From Candidatus Gastranaerophilales bacterium (GTDB taxonomy: Bacteria; Cyanobacteriota; Vampirovibrionia; Gastranaerophilales; Gastranaerophilaceae), in contig CALUPO010000013.1 of assembly GCA_944322675.1 (NCBI GenBank), forward strand, positions 1 to 52,124: DNA of 52,124 nt, given 5' to 3'. The translations under genes were made by a program, and so were the position numbers. Below, one piece after another: positions 16,099-35,888 of this stretch; position 1 is the stretch's first letter, and every line of letters starts with the position of its first letter. The notes under the pieces are model-generated. The model ran no database searches and had not been told where the DNA came from. It saw nothing but the letters and a program-made list of their open reading frames with translations.

Positions 16099-17814
16099 TT
16101 GTCTACAAGTATTGATTACTTTGACTATATACGAATAAGTATCGCATCACCTGAGCGTATACTTAAATGGTCATATGGAGAGGTGACAAAACCTGAAACC
16201 ATAAATTACCGTACTTTAAAACCTGAGCGTGATGGTTTATTTTGCGAAAGGATTTTTGGACCTTCAAAGGATTGGGAATGCTATTGCGGTAAATATAAAA
16301 GAGTTCGCCACAAGGGTATAATTTGTGAGCGATGTGGTGTTGAAGTTACTGATTCAAAAGTACGACGTCATCGTTTGGGTCATATAAAATTGGCTGCACC
16401 TGTTAGTCATATTTGGTTTTTAAAAGGAATACCTTCATATTTAGGTTTATTACTTGATATGACTTTAAAAGATTTAGAACAGGTTATTTATTTTAATAAC
16501 TATGTTGTTATAAACCCAGGAGAAAGTGATTTTAAGAAATTCCAACTAATTGTTGAAGAAGATTATGAAGATTATATATTAGAAAATGAAGATTCTGAGT
16601 TAAAAGTTGGAATTGGTGCTGAGGCTATAAAAGAATTATTAGCTGAAATTAATTTGAATGAATTAGTTGAAGAAGTTCGCAATGAGCTTGCACAAAGCGG
16701 TGGTTCTGTTCAAAAGAAAGCGAAGTTGATTAAGCGTTTACGTTTAATAGAGTCTTTAATTGAAAGCGGAACAGAACCAACTTGGATGATAATGGATGTA
16801 TTGCCTGTAACACCTCCTGATTTGCGTCCTATGGTGCAATTGGATGGTGGACGTTTTGCTACATCTGATTTGAATGATTTATATCGTCGTGTTATAAACC
16901 GTAATAATCGTTTGTTGCGTTTGCTTGAAATGGGTGCCCCTGAAATTATTGTAAGAAACGAAAAACGTATGCTTCAAGAAGCTGTTGATGCATTGATTGA
17001 CAACGGGCGTCGCGGACGTATGGTTGTTGGACCGAATAATCGTCCTTTAAAATCTTTAAGCAACATAATTGAAGGTAAACAAGGTCGTTTCCGTCAAAAC
17101 TTGTTAGGTAAGCGTGTTGACTATTCAGGTCGTTCTGTTATTGTTGTTGGTCCGCAGCTTGCTTTAAATCAATGTGGTTTGCCAAAAGAAATGGCAATTG
17201 AGTTATTTAAGCCGTTTGTTGTTAATAAATTAATAGAGCGTGGTCATGTTCAAAATATAAAATCAGCAAAGAAAAAAATAGAACGTTCAGAAGCAATTGT
17301 TTGGGATATTTTAGAAGAGGTTATTGAAGGACATCCTGTGTTGCTTAACCGTGCTCCAACCTTGCACAGGCTTGGTATTCAGGCTTTTGAACCAATCTTG
17401 GTTGAAGGTCGAGCAATTCAGCTTCACCCACTTGTATGTACAGCATTTAATGCTGACTTTGATGGTGACCAAATGGCTGTTCACGTTCCTTTATCTATTG
17501 AGGCTCAAACTGAAGCCCGTATGTTAATGCTGGCAACAAACAATATACTTGCACCGGCTACCGGTAAACCAATTATCACACCATCACAGGATATGGTATT
17601 GGGAATATATTATTTAACTATTATTAAAGATGAAAATTCGCCAATATGTGGTCATTTCTTTAGTTTTAAAGATGCGATTTCTGCGTATGAAGCAGGTGTT
17701 ATAAATCTTCATGATAAAATTGTTGTTCGTGACGATGATAATAATCGTATTGAAACAACAGTAGGTCGCATTATTTTTAATGAAGTTGTCCAAAATTCAA
17801 TATTGGCATCATAG
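16099..17814 (+). CDS. rpoC1: RNA polymerase beta' N-terminal half (gamma subunit)
   Basis: 571 residues corresponding to the N-terminal half of bacterial beta'. The start is TTG with AAAGGAG 7 bases upstream. The zinc ribbon Cys are at C61, C63, C76 and C79 (ECYCGKYKR...IICERCG). The catalytic Mg-binding motif [12 protein letters not shown] is at about 451-462. The protein ends shortly after the active-site double-psi barrel, and rpoC2 begins 28 bases downstream. A split rpoC is a hallmark of Cyanobacteria, plastids and the Melainabacteria lineage, and here it is the strongest marker of taxonomy. There is no frameshift: the two ORFs are separated by a proper stop and a new ATG. Confidence 0.98.
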
Positions 17815-17842
17815 GTTAATAAAGTAAGGAAGTTATAATAAA

Positions 17843-20800
17843 ATGAATAATACATACTCATCTCAAAAAAATGTTAAGAAAAATTTTGATTATATAAATA
17901 AAATTGTTGATAAAAAAGGCTTGAATAAGTTGTTATCCCAGATTTATTTAGAATTTGGCGGTGCTAAAACTGCAACTTTGGCAAACAATTTAAAAAATTT
18001 AGGCTATAAGTATGCAACAAAAGCAGGAACAACTATATCAATTAAGGATTTGGATGTTCCTGAGGTTAAAGCTCAATTATTAAAAGAAGCAGAAGATGAA
18101 ATTGAAAAATCAACACAAAGATATTTAAAAGGTGAAATTACTGAAGTAGAAAGATATACAAAGGTTATTGACACTTGGAGTGAAACAACGGCAAAGTTGA
18201 CGCAAGAAGTTGTTGAAAATTTCGATAAATTAAATCCTGTGTATATGATGGCATTTTCAGGAGCTCGTGGTAATGTTTCTCAGGTTTCGCAGCTTGTTGG
18301 TATGCGTGGTTTGATGGCAGATGCACAAGGGCAAATTATTGACTTACCAATCAAATCTAACTTTAAAGAAGGTTTAAGTGTTACAGAATATATTATTTCA
18401 AGTTATGGTGCACGTAAAGGGCTTGTTGATACGGCTTTAAAAACAGCGGATAGCGGATATTTAACACGTCGTCTTGTTGATGTTGCACAGGATGTTATAA
18501 TTCGTGATGCTGATTGTCATACTAAAAAAGCAATAAAAATGATGGCAATATCTGATGGTGAAAAAAATATTGTTCCTCTAACTGAACGTTTGCTTGGTAG
18601 GACTATTGCTCAGGATATTGTCGACGAAAATGGAAAAGTTATTGTTGAAGCCAATACAACAATGTCACGTGATGATATTAAAAAAATTGAACCATTGAAT
18701 TTAAAGGAATGTATGGTTCGTTCAGGTTTAACCTGTGAGCTTGAATATGGTGTCTGTCAAAAATGTTATGGTTGGGCTATGACAACACAAAAGCTTGTTG
18801 ATATAGGTGAATCAATTGGTATTATTGCAGCACAATCAATAGGTGAGCCCGGAACACAGTTGACAATGAGAACTTTCCATACAGGTGGTGTATTTAAGGG
18901 TTCAGGAGCTATGAGACATATTGAGGCTCAAAAAGACGGTGAAGTTGTTTCAAAAATATTAATAAAAGAATTAAGAACTCGTCATGGTGACGTTGTTAAA
19001 GTAACAATTCATGAATCTGATATTGTTATAAAAACTCAAAGTGGAGAGGAAAAATACCATGTTCCATCAAATGCAATTATACATGTGCAACAAGGAGATA
19101 CTGTAAAAAAAGGGCAGATATTAGCAGAATTTGAGCCGCAATCACAAGGTGATGGAAGTCGTTTGACTGAAAAAGCTACAAAAGATATTACTACGGATAT
19201 TTCAGGTGAAGTTATTTTTGAAGATTTTGTTGCTGATGAAAAAAAGGATAGGCAAGGAAACATTTCAAGGACTTCGAATAAAGGTGGTATTATTTGGGTA
19301 TTAGGCGGAGATGTTTACAATTTACCCGGTGGTTCAAAGGTGCTTGTGGAAGATCAGCAATTTGTTAATGCCGGTGAAAAGTTAGCAGAAACTCATATTG
19401 TATCAGAACATGGCGGTGAAGTTCGTTTAGGAAATGATTTAGTAGTTGAAAGTGTTGAATTTGATGGTAAAACCATTAAAAAGGTTATTCAGGGTAAGGA
19501 AATAACAATAGTTATTGCGTCTATTATGCCTAAGAATGCTGTTTTTGAAGCTACTAAAAAAGAACAAATCTGGAATGTTAAAAATAGTGATGAAAAATAC
19601 ATTGTAAAATCGCCTATTGATACTACTGTTGAAAACGGTATGATTATTGCCGAGTTAATAAGTGATGAATGTTCAGTTGATTCAAGTGGTGAAATTCGTT
19701 ATAACGGTGTTGAGGTTGATGAAAATCAAATTATAACAAAACCCGGGCAGTTGATATTTATACCTGAAGAAGTTTATCAGGTAAATAAAGATTCTTCATT
19801 AAAAATGGTTGAATCAGGTACATTTGTGACAGCCGGTACTGAAGTTGTTAAGGATTTGTATACACATATTGATGGTATTGTTCAAATAAAAGAATTTAAT
19901 GATTTAATACATGAAGTTGTAATTCGTCCCGGTGAAATACATACATTGAGCAATTTAGGCGATTTGAAAGTTGATGAAGGTGAAGTTGTTCAAAAAGGTG
20001 AATATATTACAAAAGATATTGTTGCAAATGAAACGTCGGTTGTTACTATTTTGGAAGCTGAGTCTGATATTACAATTGATGATTTAGATGAGGAACTTGA
20101 ACTTGCAATGGATGAAGATACTTTGTCTAATAGGCCTGTTCAAATTTTGGTGCGACCTGTTAAAACATTTATGATAGAACCTAAAGATGTTGCTATTGAG
20201 TTTAATTCAACAGAAGAATCTATTGATATAGTTCCTGTTACTCAATTGCAATTTAAGGATGGAGCTCGTGTTAGGAATTTAGATGGTGCAACGTTAACAC
20301 GCACAAGTTTGGTATTGCAAATGGGTGGTTATTTAAGCCACTTAAAAGGAATGGTTGAGTTGGATAAGGATAACAATTTAAAAGTTGTTGTTCTTGAAAC
20401 TTTAATTATAAGGCGTGAAACTGAAGGTGCTCAGGGGATTGAAAATGCTTTACAAACAGAATTACTTGTTGAAAATGGTGATATTATTGAGTCAAAATCA
20501 CCTGTTGCAAAAACACAAGTTCTTGCTGTACATCCTGCTGTTGCAAATATAAAGAAAAATATGACTGATTTTCGTCGTTTACTTCTTGTATCTTCAGATA
20601 ATGAAGAAATTGTTTCGTTTAAGGGTAAGCCACAAGTTAAAGAAGGTGCTTTTATTAAACGTGATAGCATTATTTCTTCAAACGGTGATAAAACACCTGT
20701 ATCAGGAAAGATTGTTAAGGTGAATGATGATAATATATCAATTCGTATAGGTCGTCCTTATTTAATAAGTCCTGGTACAATGCTTCAGGTTGATAACGGT

Positions 20801-21685
20801 GCTTTAGTTCTTCGTGGTGATGTTGTTGCAACTCTTGTATTTGAAAGACAAAAAACAGGTGATATTGTTCAGGGTCTTCCTCGTGTTGAAGAATTGTTGG
20901 AAGGTCGTAAACCTAAGGAAAGTGCAATTGTTGCAGAATTTGAAGGAACAGTTGAGTTAGAAGTGGAAGATGATATTACACATTTATATCTTGTTGATGA
21001 CTATGGTCGTCATGAGATTAAGTATCCTATTGATTCAAATATTATAGTTTCACATAATCAAAAGATTAAAGTTGGTCAACCTTTAACAAGTGGGCCTTTA
21101 AATCCTCATGATGTTATGAGGTTAAATGGACCTGAGGTGGCACAACAGTATTTGGTTGATGAAGTTCAAAGAGTTTATCGTTCACAAGGTGTTGAAATTG
21201 CTGATAAACATGTTGAAATTATTGTACGTCAAATGACTAAGAAAGTTAAAGTTCTTGATCCTGGTGATACCAAGTTGCTTCCAGGTGAATTAATTGAAGT
21301 TCAATTTGTTGAAGCTGAAAATAAAAAAGTAAAAGAACTTGAAGGACAAGAAGCCACTTATGAGCCGGTTCTTTTAGGTATAACAAAAGCAAGTTTAAAT
21401 ACTGAAAGCTTTATTTCAGCTGCATCATTCCAGGAAACTACAAGAATATTAACTGAAGCTGCTGTTGAAGGTAAGCGGGATTTACTTCGAGGCCTAAAAG
21501 AAAATGTAATTATAGGTCGTTTAATCCCTGCAGGTACAGGTTATCATCATTTGATTAATGCAAATGAAGAAAAAGAAAAAGAAGCTTTAAAGCGTGCTGC
21601 TTTGAAAAATTCTCCTCGAAAACCTGCAGCAATTCTTGAAGAAATAGAAGGTATGTTTGGAACTCCAGACTTTAATATCGAGTAG
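17843..21685 (+). CDS. rpoC2: RNA polymerase beta' C-terminal half with large trigger-loop insertion
   Basis: 1280 residues. The N-terminal part has FSGARGNVSQVSQLVGMRGL (bridge-helix region), GYLTRRLVDVAQD and the zinc-site region CQKCYGW. The trigger-loop segment GEPGTQLTMRTFHTGG reaches about residue 349 and the conserved QGLPRVEELLEGRKPKE resumes at about residue 1010, so about 650 residues are inserted. The insert matches the position of SI3 and consists of repeated beta-rich barrel-like (SBHM-type) units such as GDVVKVTIHE, VVQKGEYI and VKEGAFI. Cyanobacterial rpoC2 carries an insertion of about this size. The C-terminus ends IEGMFGTPDFNIE. A strong terminator follows. Confidence 0.98.
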   Translation: MNNTYSSQKNVKKNFDYINKIVDKKGLNKLLSQIYLEFGGAKTATLANNLKNLGYKYATKAGTTISIKDLDVPEVKAQLLKEAEDEIEKSTQRYLKGEITEVERYTKVIDTWSETTAKLTQEVVENFDKLNPVYMMAFSGARGNVSQVSQLVGMRGLMADAQGQIIDLPIKSNFKEGLSVTEYIISSYGARKGLVDTALKTADSGYLTRRLVDVAQDVIIRDADCHTKKAIKMMAISDGEKNIVPLTERLLGRTIAQDIVDENGKVIVEANTTMSRDDIKKIEPLNLKECMVRSGLTCELEYGVCQKCYGWAMTTQKLVDIGESIGIIAAQSIGEPGTQLTMRTFHTGGVFKGSGAMRHIEAQKDGEVVSKILIKELRTRHGDVVKVTIHESDIVIKTQSGEEKYHVPSNAIIHVQQGDTVKKGQILAEFEPQSQGDGSRLTEKATKDITTDISGEVIFEDFVADEKKDRQGNISRTSNKGGIIWVLGGDVYNLPGGSKVLVEDQQFVNAGEKLAETHIVSEHGGEVRLGNDLVVESVEFDGKTIKKVIQGKEITIVIASIMPKNAVFEATKKEQIWNVKNSDEKYIVKSPIDTTVENGMIIAELISDECSVDSSGEIRYNGVEVDENQIITKPGQLIFIPEEVYQVNKDSSLKMVESGTFVTAGTEVVKDLYTHIDGIVQIKEFNDLIHEVVIRPGEIHTLSNLGDLKVDEGEVVQKGEYITKDIVANETSVVTILEAESDITIDDLDEELELAMDEDTLSNRPVQILVRPVKTFMIEPKDVAIEFNSTEESIDIVPVTQLQFKDGARVRNLDGATLTRTSLVLQMGGYLSHLKGMVELDKDNNLKVVVLETLIIRRETEGAQGIENALQTELLVENGDIIESKSPVAKTQVLAVHPAVANIKKNMTDFRRLLLVSSDNEEIVSFKGKPQVKEGAFIKRDSIISSNGDKTPVSGKIVKVNDDNISIRIGRPYLISPGTMLQVDNGALVLRGDVVATLVFERQKTGDIVQGLPRVEELLEGRKPKESAIVAEFEGTVELEVEDDITHLYLVDDYGRHEIKYPIDSNIIVSHNQKIKVGQPLTSGPLNPHDVMRLNGPEVAQQYLVDEVQRVYRSQGVEIADKHVEIIVRQMTKKVKVLDPGDTKLLPGELIEVQFVEAENKKVKELEGQEATYEPVLLGITKASLNTESFISAASFQETTRILTEAAVEGKRDLLRGLKENVIIGRLIPAGTGYHHLINANEEKEKEALKRAALKNSPRKPAAILEEIEGMFGTPDFNIE

Positions 21686-27011: not shown

Positions 27012-27076
27012 TAATTATAAGTATTTATTTTACAATAATATTGACACAATATTTTATTTATGTTAGTTTTCTAGTT

Positions 27077-27180
27077 AATAACTTTGAGGAAATTGGGTGA
27101 AACTCCCAAGCCGGGCCGCGGCCGTAAAGTCGGAATGCTTAAAGTTGTTATAAATAGGCGAAGGTACTTCGAGCATTATA
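27077..27180 (+). ncRNA. Cobalamin-type riboswitch aptamer
   Basis: The core reads AACTTTGAGGAA, then GGGTGAAACTCCC, then GCCGGGCCGCGGCCGTAAAG and TCGGAATGCTTAAAGTT. It matches the cobalamin aptamer consensus (GGAA-n-GGTGnAAnTCC, then GCyGnnCCGCnGCnGTAA, close to the E. coli btuB version). AACTTTGAG pairs with CTTAAAGTT (9 pairs, one G-U) and closes the core. A hairpin CGAAG-GTA-CTTCG flanked by TTATAA follows at about 27139-27179 and could provide the kissing loop. The form is compact, like the short class II/AdoCbl-variant aptamers. A terminator follows, and then an operon of unknown function. Confidence 0.75.
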
Positions 27181-27220
27181 AGTCTTTTTAGCCATGCAGG
27201 TTTAATATAATAATAGCTTG

Positions 27221-27276
27221 AATATCCCGCTTCAAAAACTAAGTTAAAAAGCTTTAGTAGAGAAAGGGATTTTTTA
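27221..27276 (+). terminator. Riboswitch expression-platform terminator
   Basis: ATCCCGCTTC pairs with GAAAGGGAT (with an inner CTAAG/CTTTAG stem), followed by six Ts. It lies between the aptamer and the start codon at 27312, so cobalamin binding could control transcription termination. Confidence 0.65.
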
Positions 27277-27311
27277 GTAATGTTTAATAAGTTTAAAGTG
27301 GAAACACAATA

Positions 27312-28040
27312 ATGGCGGCAATAAATAAAGTATCGCCTATTAAAGTTGGAACATGTCCGCATGGATTGCCAATGGGAGCATGCCCTATTTGTAATGCATC
27401 AGGTGGTGCAGGAAGTATGAAAAAGGCTGATTTTTCTGCAAAACCTGGTGAAATGAGTTATGCTCAATGTCTTGCTATAGGTAATATGTTGAAAGCTCAA
27501 AAACAAAGACGTGAAGATGCAAAACAAGATATTATCCAAATGCAGCAACAATTGGCTTTATTTTATAAAAATATGAATAATATGATTCAAAAATTTCAGA
27601 TGATTCTTGTGAATTCTTATAATAAATTACCTGATGGAATTAAAACAATCATTAAAAATGTTGCAAATAACGTTATCATGCCAACTTTAAACTTTGTAAG
27701 AAATGTATTTAATAATATAAAGAATTATATAAATAATACCTACCAACAGATAAAAGGCATGCTTAAGGAGGCATGCGATAGATTTGTTGGCATGCTTGGA
27801 GAAATTAAAAATTTTTTTGAAAAACAAATTTTGGAAAAATTAGATAATATAAAAAATAGATTATATAAACTATTTGGATTTTCAAATGTAAATTCAGAAC
27901 AAAATAATGATGAAAAAAAAGTTAGTAAAGAGGAAAAGTTATTAAATAAATTAAATAAAATTAAAGATTGGTTAAAAAATATTTTTAAGAAAAAGAAGGA
28001 AAATAAAAATAAACATAAACATAAAAAGCATGACAAATAA
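27312..28040 (+). CDS. CPHG...CPIC helical protein, riboswitch-controlled, unknown function
   Basis: 242 residues. The N-terminus holds a compact putative metal site, TCPHGLPMGACPIC (C15, H17, C24, C27). Residues 45-200 are long amphipathic helices with many Asn, Phe and Ile, for example IMPTLNFVRNVFNNIKNYIN. The C-terminus is extremely basic and His-rich (KKKKENKNKHKHKKHDK). No catalytic domain is recognised. The start is ATG with a weak GTGGA upstream. It is the first gene after the cobalamin-type riboswitch and terminator, and the genes at 28086 and 29620 follow on the same strand. A membrane-surface or metal-related role is a guess. Confidence 0.8.
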   Translation: MAAINKVSPIKVGTCPHGLPMGACPICNASGGAGSMKKADFSAKPGEMSYAQCLAIGNMLKAQKQRREDAKQDIIQMQQQLALFYKNMNNMIQKFQMILVNSYNKLPDGIKTIIKNVANNVIMPTLNFVRNVFNNIKNYINNTYQQIKGMLKEACDRFVGMLGEIKNFFEKQILEKLDNIKNRLYKLFGFSNVNSEQNNDEKKVSKEEKLLNKLNKIKDWLKNIFKKKKENKNKHKHKKHDK

Positions 28041-28085
28041 TTTTATGTTTGTTTTTTATATATTTGTTGAGGGATTGTGTAAATT

Positions 28086-29606
28086 ATGGTGAATAATATA
28101 GCTGGTATAAACATTAATAATCAGAATAACGAACAAAAAAAGCATGCTCAAAATCTGGATAAGAAAAAAAAATTAGGAAATGATGCAGCTGTTTTAAATA
28201 CTGGATATTTAAATGAAATGTATAATTCGTTAATTATACCAAGTGATGAGTCTGTTAAAAGTTTTTGTATAAATGATAAAGTTTATTTAAAAGAAAATAA
28301 AAGTGATAAAGATTATAAGAAGATATTTAAAGCTACATGCCTTGCTTCATTTGGCTTAACTGCTCTTATTGCAGGTTGTACAGGTATAATAAAGGCATCA
28401 GCACGAAATAAAGTGAAAAATGCTTTTGAACGGCAATTGCCTGAATTACCAAGAAATATTTGTTTGAATGATGAAAAAATTTTTGCAACATATATGGCAA
28501 TACAAAATCCATCAATGAAAACGTTAATAGGAGTGACAGGTGTTTTTGGACTTGGATTTATAGGACTTATTGCTAAAAATTTTATTGATGGTTTTAAGTC
28601 AATATGGGTAAAAAAGCAAGAAGCTAAAACACAAATTGAATTGCAAAATAAACTTATTGAGGTTGAAACCAATAGTTTTGCTGGCAAAGTTCAAATACAA
28701 AGAGATTTAATGTCAAAATGTGCAAAGAAATTTGAGCATGTTTTGGAAAGTAAAGATAACAAACATAAAAGGCATGCAAAATCCAGAATTGATTTTAAAG
28801 CAGGTGAAAAGGATATACAGGCAAAACAATCTGGAAAAGATAACATATTTTATTTTGGCTTAGGTGGGATAACGCTTTGCGGCATGGGATTTATGGCATA
28901 TATAACAAAAAAAAATTTAAAAGATGCTGATAAGTATTATAAACAGTTTCAGTCAAAATTAAAAGACACAGTTAGTGCTTTTATAAAAAATGTTGGAGAC
29001 GAAACTACAAGCTTAAGTTTACCTTATGAAGTTGTTGAGAAAATAAAAAATCGCATGGTGACTTTAGCACCTGATAATAAAGAAATAGATAGCATGCTTG
29101 AGCCTTTAAGATCAAAAATGAAAAATAAAGGTGAATTTGAGAAATTTAAAAGTGCAATAAAGCATGAAGTTAGAAAAATTTCAGATACTGCTTCAGAAGC
29201 AATAGCTGGGAAACCCGGTAATAAAGCTACATTTTATTCTCATGTAGATGATTTAAGAGGTCATTTTTATAATTGGATAGTGAATGATTGTGATCCAACA
29301 TTAGGATTTTTATTTTTAGCGATGATGTTAACAACCTCACTTGGATATATTGGTTTAAGAGCTATTGAAGCAGTTCGAGAAACTGGTGTTATTAAAGCAA
29401 ATGCAAAAACTGAGCTTGACATGCAAAAACAACTTGTGGATGTTGAATTAAGAAGTTACCGAGCTAAAAAAAATACAGCAATAACACCTTTAATGGAAGA
29501 ATTTGACAAAAAATCAAGTGAAGGAAAGGATATAAAAGATTTAAAGATTATGGCAGAAAATATATTAATGGAAATAAAAAATGGGCCGCCATATATTTTC
29601 ACTTAA
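28086..29606 (+). CDS. Duplicated membrane protein of the IWV family
   Basis: 506 residues with four membrane segments (near ATCLASFGLTALIAGCTGII, GVTGVFGLGFIGLIA, FGLGGITLCGMGFMA, FLFLAMMLTTSLGYIGLRA). The two halves look like an internal duplication: helix 2 is followed by KSIWVKKQEAKTQIELQNKL and helix 4 by GVIKANAKTELDMQKQLVDV. Charged helical regions separate the membrane pairs. The helix-IWV-Lys/Glu-rich pattern is shared with the membrane proteins at 670-1323 and 50768-51451. It is 45 bases after the CPHG protein gene and 13 bases before the next gene, so the three are probably one operon. The function is unknown. Confidence 0.8.
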   Translation: MVNNIAGININNQNNEQKKHAQNLDKKKKLGNDAAVLNTGYLNEMYNSLIIPSDESVKSFCINDKVYLKENKSDKDYKKIFKATCLASFGLTALIAGCTGIIKASARNKVKNAFERQLPELPRNICLNDEKIFATYMAIQNPSMKTLIGVTGVFGLGFIGLIAKNFIDGFKSIWVKKQEAKTQIELQNKLIEVETNSFAGKVQIQRDLMSKCAKKFEHVLESKDNKHKRHAKSRIDFKAGEKDIQAKQSGKDNIFYFGLGGITLCGMGFMAYITKKNLKDADKYYKQFQSKLKDTVSAFIKNVGDETTSLSLPYEVVEKIKNRMVTLAPDNKEIDSMLEPLRSKMKNKGEFEKFKSAIKHEVRKISDTASEAIAGKPGNKATFYSHVDDLRGHFYNWIVNDCDPTLGFLFLAMMLTTSLGYIGLRAIEAVRETGVIKANAKTELDMQKQLVDVELRSYRAKKNTAITPLMEEFDKKSSEGKDIKDLKIMAENILMEIKNGPPYIFT

Positions 29607-29619
29607 AGGAGGAAAACTT

Positions 29620-30156
29620 ATGTATATAAGTAAAATTATCAAATATGACCTTATTTCATTTAAGTCTAGTGTCAGTGTCGATAGAGATAGCATGGATGAC
29701 AAAATAAAACAGATAGGTAAAAAAACAATTTTACCTTCGGGGAAAATAAATTATTCTCAGTTTAATGAGAAATTAGTAAAAGAAATAGCAAGTAAAAAAG
29801 AAGCCTCATTGCCATATATAGATAAGTTTTTAAAGGAAGCACGAGGTGAAAAAGAAATAGTAGAGGGATTGTATATAGTAGATTGTTTGATTGAAAATGG
29901 AACAAAAGGTGTGGATAAATTATATCCTACGTTGTCTCGTTTTAATAAAAGCGAGAGTCCCAATATTCAGGTATTTTTAGCGGGTATATATAGGAAAACT
30001 CAGGTACCTGATGCATTTGGTCCTTTATGTAGCATGCTAATTAAAAATAGTATAAAACCAGATAAGAATGTTAATTTTGATCCAAATGAGGAAATTGGCG
30101 GGGCCATTTTGGAGTATATTAGAAATAAAAATGCAGCAAATGCTTATAATCATTAA
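29620..30156 (+). CDS. Helical-repeat protein, unknown function
   Basis: 178 residues from ATG at 29620, selected for the strong AAAGGAGG 7 bases upstream. The central region (LPYIDKFLKEARGEKEIVEG, YIVDCLIENGTKGVDKLYPT, VQVFLAGIYRKTQVPDAFGP-like blocks) is made of helical pairs like HEAT/ARM repeats. There is no signal peptide or membrane helix. It is the last gene of the riboswitch-controlled operon, 13 bases after the membrane protein gene. A cytoplasmic adaptor for the membrane protein would fit, but this is inference. Confidence 0.75.
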   Translation: MYISKIIKYDLISFKSSVSVDRDSMDDKIKQIGKKTILPSGKINYSQFNEKLVKEIASKKEASLPYIDKFLKEARGEKEIVEGLYIVDCLIENGTKGVDKLYPTLSRFNKSESPNIQVFLAGIYRKTQVPDAFGPLCSMLIKNSIKPDKNVNFDPNEEIGGAILEYIRNKNAANAYNH

Positions 30157-30862: not shown

Positions 30863-32387
<1,525 letters not shown>

Positions 32388-32646
32388 AGGGAGATAGAGA
32401 ATGTTGTTTCTCAATCCCAGGTCGAGATTGTTGATAGTATGAAGGTAAAGCTGTCTGAGACCTTTATACTGGAGATCTAAATTAAAAGGCATTCTTTCTT
32501 TTCTATTTTGTCTTTAGAGTTTAAGTAACTCTAAAATTTATAGATGAAATTCTATTTTGTACTTTGAAAATTGCATAATGTAATAAGCATATATCAAAAA
32601 TATTTTATTATATTTGAAGGTATAAGCGTAATCATCAATGAAATTA
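32388..32646 (+). other. 16S-23S spacer without tRNA
   Basis: About 259 bases without any tRNA gene. A boxA-like ACTTTGAAAAT is at 32561-32571. AAAATTGCATAATGTAATAA (32567-32586) pairs with TTATTGCATTGTGCAACTTT (35704-35723) after 23S, which forms the 23S processing stem. Confidence 0.8.
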
Positions 32647-35654
<3,008 letters not shown>

Positions 35655-35766
35655 TAGATATTATAACTTTTTGTTATATAGGAAATTGATAATTACGTTA
35701 AGTTTATTGCATTGTGCAACTTTAAAAGTACAGAAAACATTGATTAATTTCAATGTAAAAAGAATT

Positions 35767-35881
35767 TCTGGTGACAAGGCGGCAGCATTCCACCCGTTCC
35801 CATCTCGAACACGGTCGTAAAGACTGCTAGCGGCGACGATACTTGGAGGGTGACCTCCTGGCAAAATAGCTAGTTGCCAGA
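35767..35881 (+). rRNA. rrf: 5S ribosomal RNA
   Basis: 115 bases. The ends TCTGGTGAC and GTTGCCAGA pair, and the interior has the conserved CCCGTTCCCATCTCGAACAC loop region. It is the last gene of the rRNA operon and is followed by a terminator. Confidence 0.97.
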
Positions 35882-35888
35882 TCCTATT

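What the first reader, a model, noticed from the sequence alone, without database searches (positions are those of the whole stretch)
27077..30156. Cobalamin-type riboswitch controlling an operon of unknown function
A compact aptamer with the cobalamin core motifs is followed by a proper intrinsic terminator and then by genes not known from B12 uptake or synthesis: a CPHG...CPIC helical protein, a duplicated membrane protein and a helical-repeat protein. Riboswitch-controlled genes usually relate to the ligand, so these proteins may be a new corrinoid-related envelope system.
Basis: partly seen in the sequence, partly recalled or inferred. Interest (0 to 1): 0.75.

Follow-up and report, generated by a model that had tools for sequence, protein, structure and literature searches.

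The report
B12 switch before unknown three-gene operon
A vitamin-B12-sensing RNA switch sits in front of three uncharacterised genes found almost throughout one order of gut bacteria; these bacteria seem unable to make B12 and mostly lack the known B12 importers, so the three proteins are good candidates for an unrecognised way of obtaining B12.

Summary
Window 27071-27148 (+) passes Rfam's cut-off for the AdoCbl-II cobalamin riboswitch (41.8 bits, cut-off 36.5). It precedes three conserved genes without a known family: P1 (CPHG-x5-CPIC, 242 aa), P2 (four-TM, duplicated, 506 aa) and P3 (armadillo-like solenoid, 178 aa). A covariance model trained only on aptamers before class III ribonucleotide reductase (NrdDG) and BtuB-C-D-F-like operons finds an aptamer 51-204 nt before P1 homology in 80 of 80 named P1 loci and in 20 of 20 further P2 loci. 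P2 is in 259 of 286 genomes of the order (Gastranaerophilales) and 0 of 161 elsewhere in the phylum. The window's genome has B12-dependent NrdJ as its only detected RNR, no NrdD, no CobS, and no FecCD, TonB-plug or EcfT. Most likely the operon is made when AdoCbl is low and helps acquire or handle corrinoids. Regulation by AdoCbl is well supported by homology; the protein function is inference, and some genomes contradict a sole-importer role.

The parts
27041..27069 (+). putative promoter TTGACA-17 nt-TAGTTT
   Evidence: read in the sequence; the same boxes and 17-nt spacing stand before the aptamer in sister genome G149 (sequence printed); not listed by the consensus scan
27071..27148 (+). 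AdoCbl-II (RF01689) cobalamin riboswitch aptamer
   Evidence: 41.8 bits, gathering 36.5; 71.2 bits, E 2.9e-20 with model R1 trained only on NrdDG/Btu aptamers; P4 covariation
27224..27275 (+). expression-platform hairpin AUCCC...GGGAU plus U6: terminator-like, 3' arm AGGGA is a Shine-Dalgarno-like element
   Evidence: -10.9 kcal/mol; equivalent hairpin before P1 start in relatives
27280..27312 (+). 10-codon upstream reading frame (MFNKFKVETQ*), stop overlaps the P1 start (TAATG)
   Evidence: a different 10-codon frame ends just before the P1 start in sister genome G149 (sequence); existence as a translated peptide is not shown
27312..28040 (+). P1: 242 aa, N-terminal CPHG-x5-CPIC plus a further invariant Cys53, then amphipathic/coiled helices
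   Evidence: (40 homologues, invariant C15 P16 H17 G18 C24 P25 I26 C27 C53)
28086..29606 (+). P2: 506 aa, four predicted TM helices in two related halves, each with a long helix after its second TM
29620..30156 (+). P3: 178 aa, armadillo/HEAT-like helical solenoid
   Evidence: start chosen by Shine-Dalgarno AAAGGAGG

Best explanation
The leader is an AdoCbl-II riboswitch. When adenosylcobalamin is plentiful the RNA binds it and favours the downstream hairpin, which in the window ends transcription (U6 tail) and in most relatives also hides the Shine-Dalgarno of P1; when it is scarce P1-P2-P3 is made. The three proteins most likely form a lineage-specific membrane system by which these B12 auxotrophs acquire or handle corrinoids, in genomes lacking the usual BtuB/BtuCDF and ECF importers: P2 as the membrane part, P1 as a metal-knuckle partner, P3 as an armadillo-type adaptor. 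Shown by computation: the aptamer, the conserved linkage, the shared aptamer class with NrdDG and Btu operons, and the B12 economy of the genome. Inferred: ligand binding, OFF direction, complex formation, and the corrinoid role.
For: Rfam match above cut-off. Model R1, built from 19 aptamers before NrdDG or Btu operons and no P1 leader, finds an aptamer 51-204 nt before P1 homology in 80 of 80 named loci and before P1-P2 in 20 of 20 further loci, including three P2-positive genomes missed by the Rfam screen (G061, G124, G006). Of 61 hand-picked riboswitch loci the first operon is P1-led in 40, NrdD-led in 13, BtuB-C-D-F-like in 6, other in 2 (families on representatives; coordinates). Own genome: NrdJ, no NrdD (47), no CobS (49), no FecCD (36, 38), no TonB plug (53), no EcfT (52). 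Riboswitch and P2 are lost together: 13 of 286 genomes lack both, 14 lack P2 only, 11 lack only the Rfam hit, 248 have both (Fisher p 2.8e-9 without phylogenetic correction). In the hand-picked 66-genome set, genomes lacking both lack a full PF02867 hit in 12 of 14 (counting G151), P2-positive ones in 10 of 38 (p 2.5e-4, same caveat). Riboswitch-positive genomes without P2 more often hold a strong FecCD: 5 of 14 against 18 of 259 P2-positive (p 0.003). Platform: Shine-Dalgarno paired in 30 of 34 P1 leaders against 46 of 130 control genes; U-run before the start in 25 of 40 against 18 of 303.
Against: No ligand, expression or transport data. The operon encodes no ATPase and no recognisable corrinoid-binding motif, and P2 has no PDB fold match with E <= 0.001 (model pLDDT only 72.8). 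G102 has a PF02867 reductase but no NrdD, importer, CobS, riboswitch hit or P2, so its B12 source is unexplained. Six riboswitch-positive genomes of the window's family (G097, G184, G186, G248, G270, G280) lack both P2 and FecCD; G270 has P1 followed by two P3-like genes. 10 of 38 P2-positive genomes in the 66-set lack a full PF02867 hit, so the B12 client there is unknown. 18 genomes have both P2 and a strong FecCD, so P2 is not simply a replacement. The 66 genomes were chosen by hand and relatives are not independent. PF02310 has no match in the own genome, so NrdJ is the only B12 user seen there.
Confidence: 0.5

Rival explanations
1. A B12-scarcity response that does not handle corrinoids: B12 level is used as a signal of host or community state, and P1-P3 remodel the cell surface, adhesion or a stress structure.
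For: P2 has two long helical stalks and P3 an adaptor-like solenoid, more scaffold-like than carrier-like; no ATPase or corrinoid motif in the operon; P2 persists in 10 of 38 genomes of the 66-set without a full PF02867 hit and together with FecCD in 18 genomes.
Against: The genes, not only the switch, are missing in several lineages that also lack a PF02867 reductase (most of g23, part of g21, G087, G268, G016). The other main operons under this aptamer class in the order, NrdDG and BtuB-C-D-F-like, are directly about B12.
Confidence: 0.25
2. P1-P3 are a B12-independent substitute for a B12-dependent process, as NrdDG is for NrdJ.
For: NrdDG stands under the same aptamer class in 13 of 61 examined loci, and divergently beside P1 in 4 of 80; the logic is in print for NrdDG in delta-proteobacteria (PMC545781, passages read).
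Against: None of the three resembles an enzyme family, and P2 is a membrane protein. A substitute should persist in lineages that gave up B12, yet P2 is absent in most of those identified here.
Confidence: 0.1
3. Intracellular corrinoid trafficking, storage or reductase-linked handling rather than import, with import by an unidentified facilitator.
For: P1's invariant Cys/His motif (40 of 40) looks like a metal site, and neither P1 nor P3 shows a consistent membrane segment; the genome still needs an entry route that these searches may have missed (outer-membrane porins, BtuM-like or unknown carriers were not searched).
Against: P2 is a conserved four-TM protein in most operons (77 of 80; one miss is cut by a contig end), which points to a membrane step.
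Confidence: 0.12
4. The aptamer is a chance or decayed match, or senses another ligand such as FMN.
For: FMN gives a sub-threshold overlapping match (27.1 of 66.2 bits).
Against: Score above cut-off, covariation, 80 of 80 and 20 of 20 conserved linkage, and the same aptamer before B12-related operons.
Confidence: 0.03

Closest known systems
AdoCbl-II riboswitch (Rfam RF01689; listed as 'AdoCbl-variant', taxa 'Marine', in PMC2864571; passages read)
   Same: Full-length match above the gathering score, P4 covariation, association with B12-related operons in the same order.
   Different: New host order and a new target operon; in the leaders examined the platform hairpin often combines Shine-Dalgarno sequestration with a U-run.
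B12-element-controlled NrdDG with NrdJ in the genome (delta-proteobacteria, PMC545781; passages read)
   Same: NrdDG stands under AdoCbl-II in 13 of the 61 loci examined.
   Different: The window's genome has NrdJ and no NrdD match, so B12 cannot be bypassed that way.
BtuB-BtuCDF cobalamin import (TonB receptor plus FecCD ABC importer)
   Same: Sits under the same aptamer class in some relatives (6 of 61 loci) and would serve the same need.
   Different: P1-P3 show no TonB plug, barrel, FecCD, ABC ATPase or BtuF domain; own genome lacks FecCD and TonB plug.
ECF-type cobalamin import (CbrT with EcfT; recalled, not searched in print)
   Same: Would serve the same need.
   Different: No EcfT (PF02361) in the own genome or in any of 46 genomes of its family searched.

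Membership tests
AdoCbl-II riboswitch (RF01689) | covariance-model score above the curated cut-off | tested here: met
   41.8 bits against 36.5, model positions 1-81
AdoCbl-II riboswitch (RF01689) | conserved, covarying secondary structure in homologous leaders | tested here: met
   40 leaders: 4 of 5 P4 pairs change on both sides and stay paired; P6 pairs invariant; outer stem not recovered in this alignment
AdoCbl-II riboswitch (RF01689) | same aptamer before B12-related genes | tested here: met
   NrdDG and BtuB-C-D-F-like operons
AdoCbl-II riboswitch (RF01689) | ligand-switchable expression platform | tested here: inconclusive
   hairpin with U-run / Shine-Dalgarno sequestration seen; the alternative fold and kissing loop were not resolved
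AdoCbl-II riboswitch (RF01689) | binds adenosylcobalamin | not testable with these tools
   needs in-line probing or ITC
BtuB/BtuCDF importer (P1-P3 as a member) | TonB receptor, FecCD permease, ABC ATPase, BtuF-type domains in P1-P3 | tested here: not met
   own genome lacks FecCD and plug
ECF-type cobalamin importer | EcfT in the genome | tested here: not met
B12-independent isozyme (NrdDG-like) | homology to NrdD or NrdG | tested here: not met
corrinoid acquisition system of new kind | needed for B12 uptake or B12-limited growth | not testable with these tools
   needs expression, knockout or uptake experiments

The most novel reading that the evidence does not exclude
P1-P2-P3 is the founding example of a new class of cobalamin (corrinoid) acquisition machinery, unrelated to TonB/BtuCDF or ECF importers, that supplies B12 to an order of gut bacteria that mostly cannot make it.
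Probability: 0.33. Interest if true: 0.9.

Novelty: new variant of a known kind. Interest (0 to 1): 0.7.

Why it matters
B12 exchange structures gut communities. If right, an order of common gut bacteria takes up or handles B12 with proteins no family model recognises, and its B12 use has been missed. The riboswitch gives a direct handle: expression should rise on B12 depletion, and the three genes can be tested for uptake in a laboratory host. It also gives three large, conserved unknown families a concrete hypothesis.

Tried and rejected
P2 structure: AlphaFold model of mean pLDDT 72.8, pTM 0.56; Foldseek against PDB gave no match with E <= 0.001, mostly long-helix or multi-helix chains; not interpreted further. 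P1 and P2 profiles against PDB sequences gave mostly coiled-coil or helix-bundle matches (P1 best E 9.5e-4; P2 best E 0.008). P1 against PHROGs: weak tape-measure matches on its helical part, treated as composition. P3 Foldseek: many armadillo/HEAT chains with probability about 0.8-0.98 but E >= 0.1; taken as fold type only.

The idea that P2 replaces FecCD outright was rejected: 18 genomes have both. The idea that every B12 user of the order has P2 was rejected: 11 of 14 riboswitch-positive, P2-negative genomes have a PF02867 reductase.

An L5-L13 kissing loop was looked for by eye in the leaders and not settled. RF00174 was not screened genome-wide; QueG, BtuM-like proteins, porins, cobalamin adenosyltransferases and the B12 pathway other than CobS were not searched, so auxotrophy rests on CobS alone. 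PF02867 covers class I as well as class II reductases; only the matches of G000 and G149 were typed as NrdJ. The whole-leader fold is not more stable than shuffles, so conservation rather than energy carries the structural claim.

Literature (PMC library only, search listings unless stated): 'Gastranaerophilales' with 'riboswitch' 0 papers; 'Gastranaerophilales' with 'B12' 28, 12 listed, none by title about B12 regulation in these bacteria; 'Melainabacteria' with 'cobalamin' 18, 15 listed; further listings. Passages read: PMC2864571, PMC4040986 (nothing on B12 uptake in the passages), PMC545781. So 'not described' holds only for these searches.

Counts dropped or inferred: and 7 genomes without a match are not named in the output; I identified them by elimination among the 22 non-family members of the order. 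G151 counts as P2-positive in the tool tally and in the 248/11/14/13 table, but its only match is a 113-column fragment (E 3.9e-4), so I moved it to the P2-negative group for the 66-genome comparison. The control row of the FecCD test is all 259 P2-positive genomes, not only the 248 with a riboswitch hit. Weak FecCD matches (G002, G015, G026, G262) were left out of the 18 and the 5.
Full report
What is there. Window 27071-27148 on the + strand matches the Rfam family AdoCbl-II (RF01689) over its whole length at 41.8 bits, above the curated 36.5; it is the only such match in this genome. A TTGACA-17-TAGTTT pair lies at 27041-27069 (read), and the same boxes with the same spacing precede the aptamer in the sister genome G149 (sequence). 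After the aptamer comes a hairpin, AUCCC at 27224 to GGGAU ending 27270, followed by six U (-10.9 kcal/mol). Then come three co-directional genes: P1 (27312-28040), P2 (28086-29606) and P3 (29620-30156 by its Shine-Dalgarno). A 16S-23S-5S operon follows at 30863-35882.

Lineage. Record titles of the P1 relatives name Candidatus Gastranaerophilales, Melainabacteria or Cyanobacteria MAGs, or are unassigned; two carry other labels (Heliobacteriaceae, Fusobacterium), which look like mislabelled MAGs. The split rpoC in the window fits cyanobacterial relatives (recalled trait). The order name is thus inferred from titles, not given by the tools.

Is the riboswitch real and tied to these genes? RF01689 matches at E <= 0.001 in 262 of 286 genomes of the order, 209 over the cut-off. 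I fetched 60 of these loci, hand-picked from the higher-scoring rows for spread over genera, and with the window examined 61: the first downstream operon is P1-led in 40, NrdD-led in 13, BtuB-C-D-F-like in 6 and other in 2. Family assignments were run on representatives; the six FecCD genes and ten of the NrdD genes are also confirmed by coordinates, the other three NrdD by their sequence only. I then built a covariance model from the 19 NrdD- and Btu-type aptamers alone. In the 80 named P1 loci (the best 80 of 296 relatives, so biased to near homologues, and overlapping in part with the other sets) it finds an aptamer on the P1 strand 51-204 nt before the P1 homology in 80 of 80. In 20 further P2 loci it finds one before P1 in 20 of 20, among them G061, G124 and G006, where the faster Rfam screen had missed it. 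In an alignment of 40 P1-type aptamers, 4 of the 5 P4 pairs have changes on both sides that keep the pair; the outer stem was not recovered there. The aptamer before P1 is therefore the same element that these bacteria place before recognised B12 genes.

Expression platform. In most P1 leaders the hairpin's 3' arm is the Shine-Dalgarno (GUCCUC...GAGGA), followed by a U-run and the start codon. The Shine-Dalgarno is paired in 30 of 34 P1 leaders with such a motif against 46 of 130 control genes in the same loci, and a run of at least five T precedes the start in 25 of 40 against 18 of 303. One hairpin may thus block both transcription and translation. In the window the arm AGGGA precedes not P1 but a 10-codon frame (27280-27312, MFNKFKVETQ*) whose stop overlaps the P1 start; G149 has a different 10-codon frame ending just before P1. 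In this genus termination, or coupling through a leader peptide, is the likelier mode. This is inference from sequence.

The proteins. P1 has C15-P-H-G...C24-P-I-C27 and C53 invariant in 40 sequences, a plausible metal knuckle, then helical sequence without a consistent TM segment. P2 has four predicted TM helices in two halves that are homologous (hhalign E 3.9e-10); each half has a TM followed by a long helix, the TM and stalk together about 75 residues, in a model of moderate quality. P3 is a confident helical solenoid of armadillo/HEAT type by Foldseek probability, with non-significant E-values. No family model reaches its cut-off for any of the three window proteins. P2 is in 259 of 286 genomes of the order by the tool's tally and in none of 161 genomes of the phylum outside it (124 of 292 in all, every match inside the order).

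B12 economy. The window's genome has one ribonucleotide reductase large chain, which is NrdJ, AdoCbl-dependent (NF006417 992 bits, cut-off 961; TIGR02504 741 bits, cut-off 400). It has no NrdD, no B12-binding domain (PF02310), no CobS, no FecCD, no TonB plug and no EcfT. In the hand-picked set of 66 genomes, CobS is in 3, EcfT in 12 (none of the 46 of the window's family), and the 11 genomes with a TonB plug over its cut-off are exactly the 11 with a strong FecCD match. Over the order strong FecCD matches are in 23 of 286 (24 over the cut-off, one weak). So this cell appears to need imported B12 but shows none of the importers searched, and its only AdoCbl-II-controlled operon is P1-P2-P3.

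Phylogenetic pattern. Of 286 genomes, 248 have both the RF01689 match and P2, 11 only P2, 14 only the RF01689 match, and 13 neither. The 13 fall in g23, g21, g17, g12, g15 and f6, whose other members mostly keep both except g23, so there are several separate losses. Counting G151 with them, 12 of these 14 lack a full PF02867 match, against 10 of 38 P2-positive genomes of the 66-set. Genes as well as switch disappear in lineages that seem to have given up B12-dependent RNR; this is why I favour a corrinoid function over a mere B12-timed response. Riboswitch-positive genomes without P2 hold a strong FecCD in 5 of 14 cases against 18 of 259 P2-positive genomes. These tests ignore shared ancestry, and the 66 genomes were chosen by hand.

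Against. G102 has a PF02867 reductase and none of NrdD, riboswitch hit, P2, FecCD, plug, EcfT or CobS. G097, G184, G186, G248, G270 and G280 have the riboswitch but neither P2 nor FecCD; G270 has P1 with two P3-like genes instead. Ten P2-positive genomes of the 66 lack a full PF02867 match. The operon has no ATPase and no corrinoid motif. P2 looks as much like a scaffold as a carrier. Missing families rest on one profile each, and draft genomes have gaps.

Verdict. The RNA is a known riboswitch class in a new lineage; its target is a new, conserved, order-specific operon. That P1-P3 acquire or handle corrinoids is the best reading (about 0.5), with a B12-timed envelope response as main rival (about 0.25). 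The literature searches found no description of a riboswitch in this order.

Noticed in passing
window 30863-35882: A complete 16S-23S-5S rRNA operon lies directly downstream of P3; ARAGORN finds no tRNA in the window, so none in its spacers.
   Followed up: partly
window 16099-21682: rpoC is split into two genes (571 and 1280 aa), as in cyanobacterial relatives (the trait itself is recalled).
   Followed up: no
L065 (genome G270): AdoCbl-II aptamer followed by P1 and two P3-like genes with no P2; G270 has no P2 match elsewhere.
   Followed up: partly
L084 (genome G004) 1268-2686: AdoCbl-II aptamer before an OprB-family porin in a genome with EcfT but no FecCD or TonB plug: a candidate outer-membrane route for B12.
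   Followed up: no
L074 (genome G198) 1075-1356: AdoCbl-II aptamer before a 94-aa reading frame without a Pfam family.
   Followed up: no
L125, L130, L145, L173: NrdDG stands divergently beside the P1-P2-P3 operon, with its own aptamer on the other strand.
   Followed up: partly
window 27076-27150: FMN riboswitch model overlaps the aptamer at 27.1 bits (cut-off 66.2), a sign of shared core motifs GGGUGAAA...GUAAAGUC.
   Followed up: no
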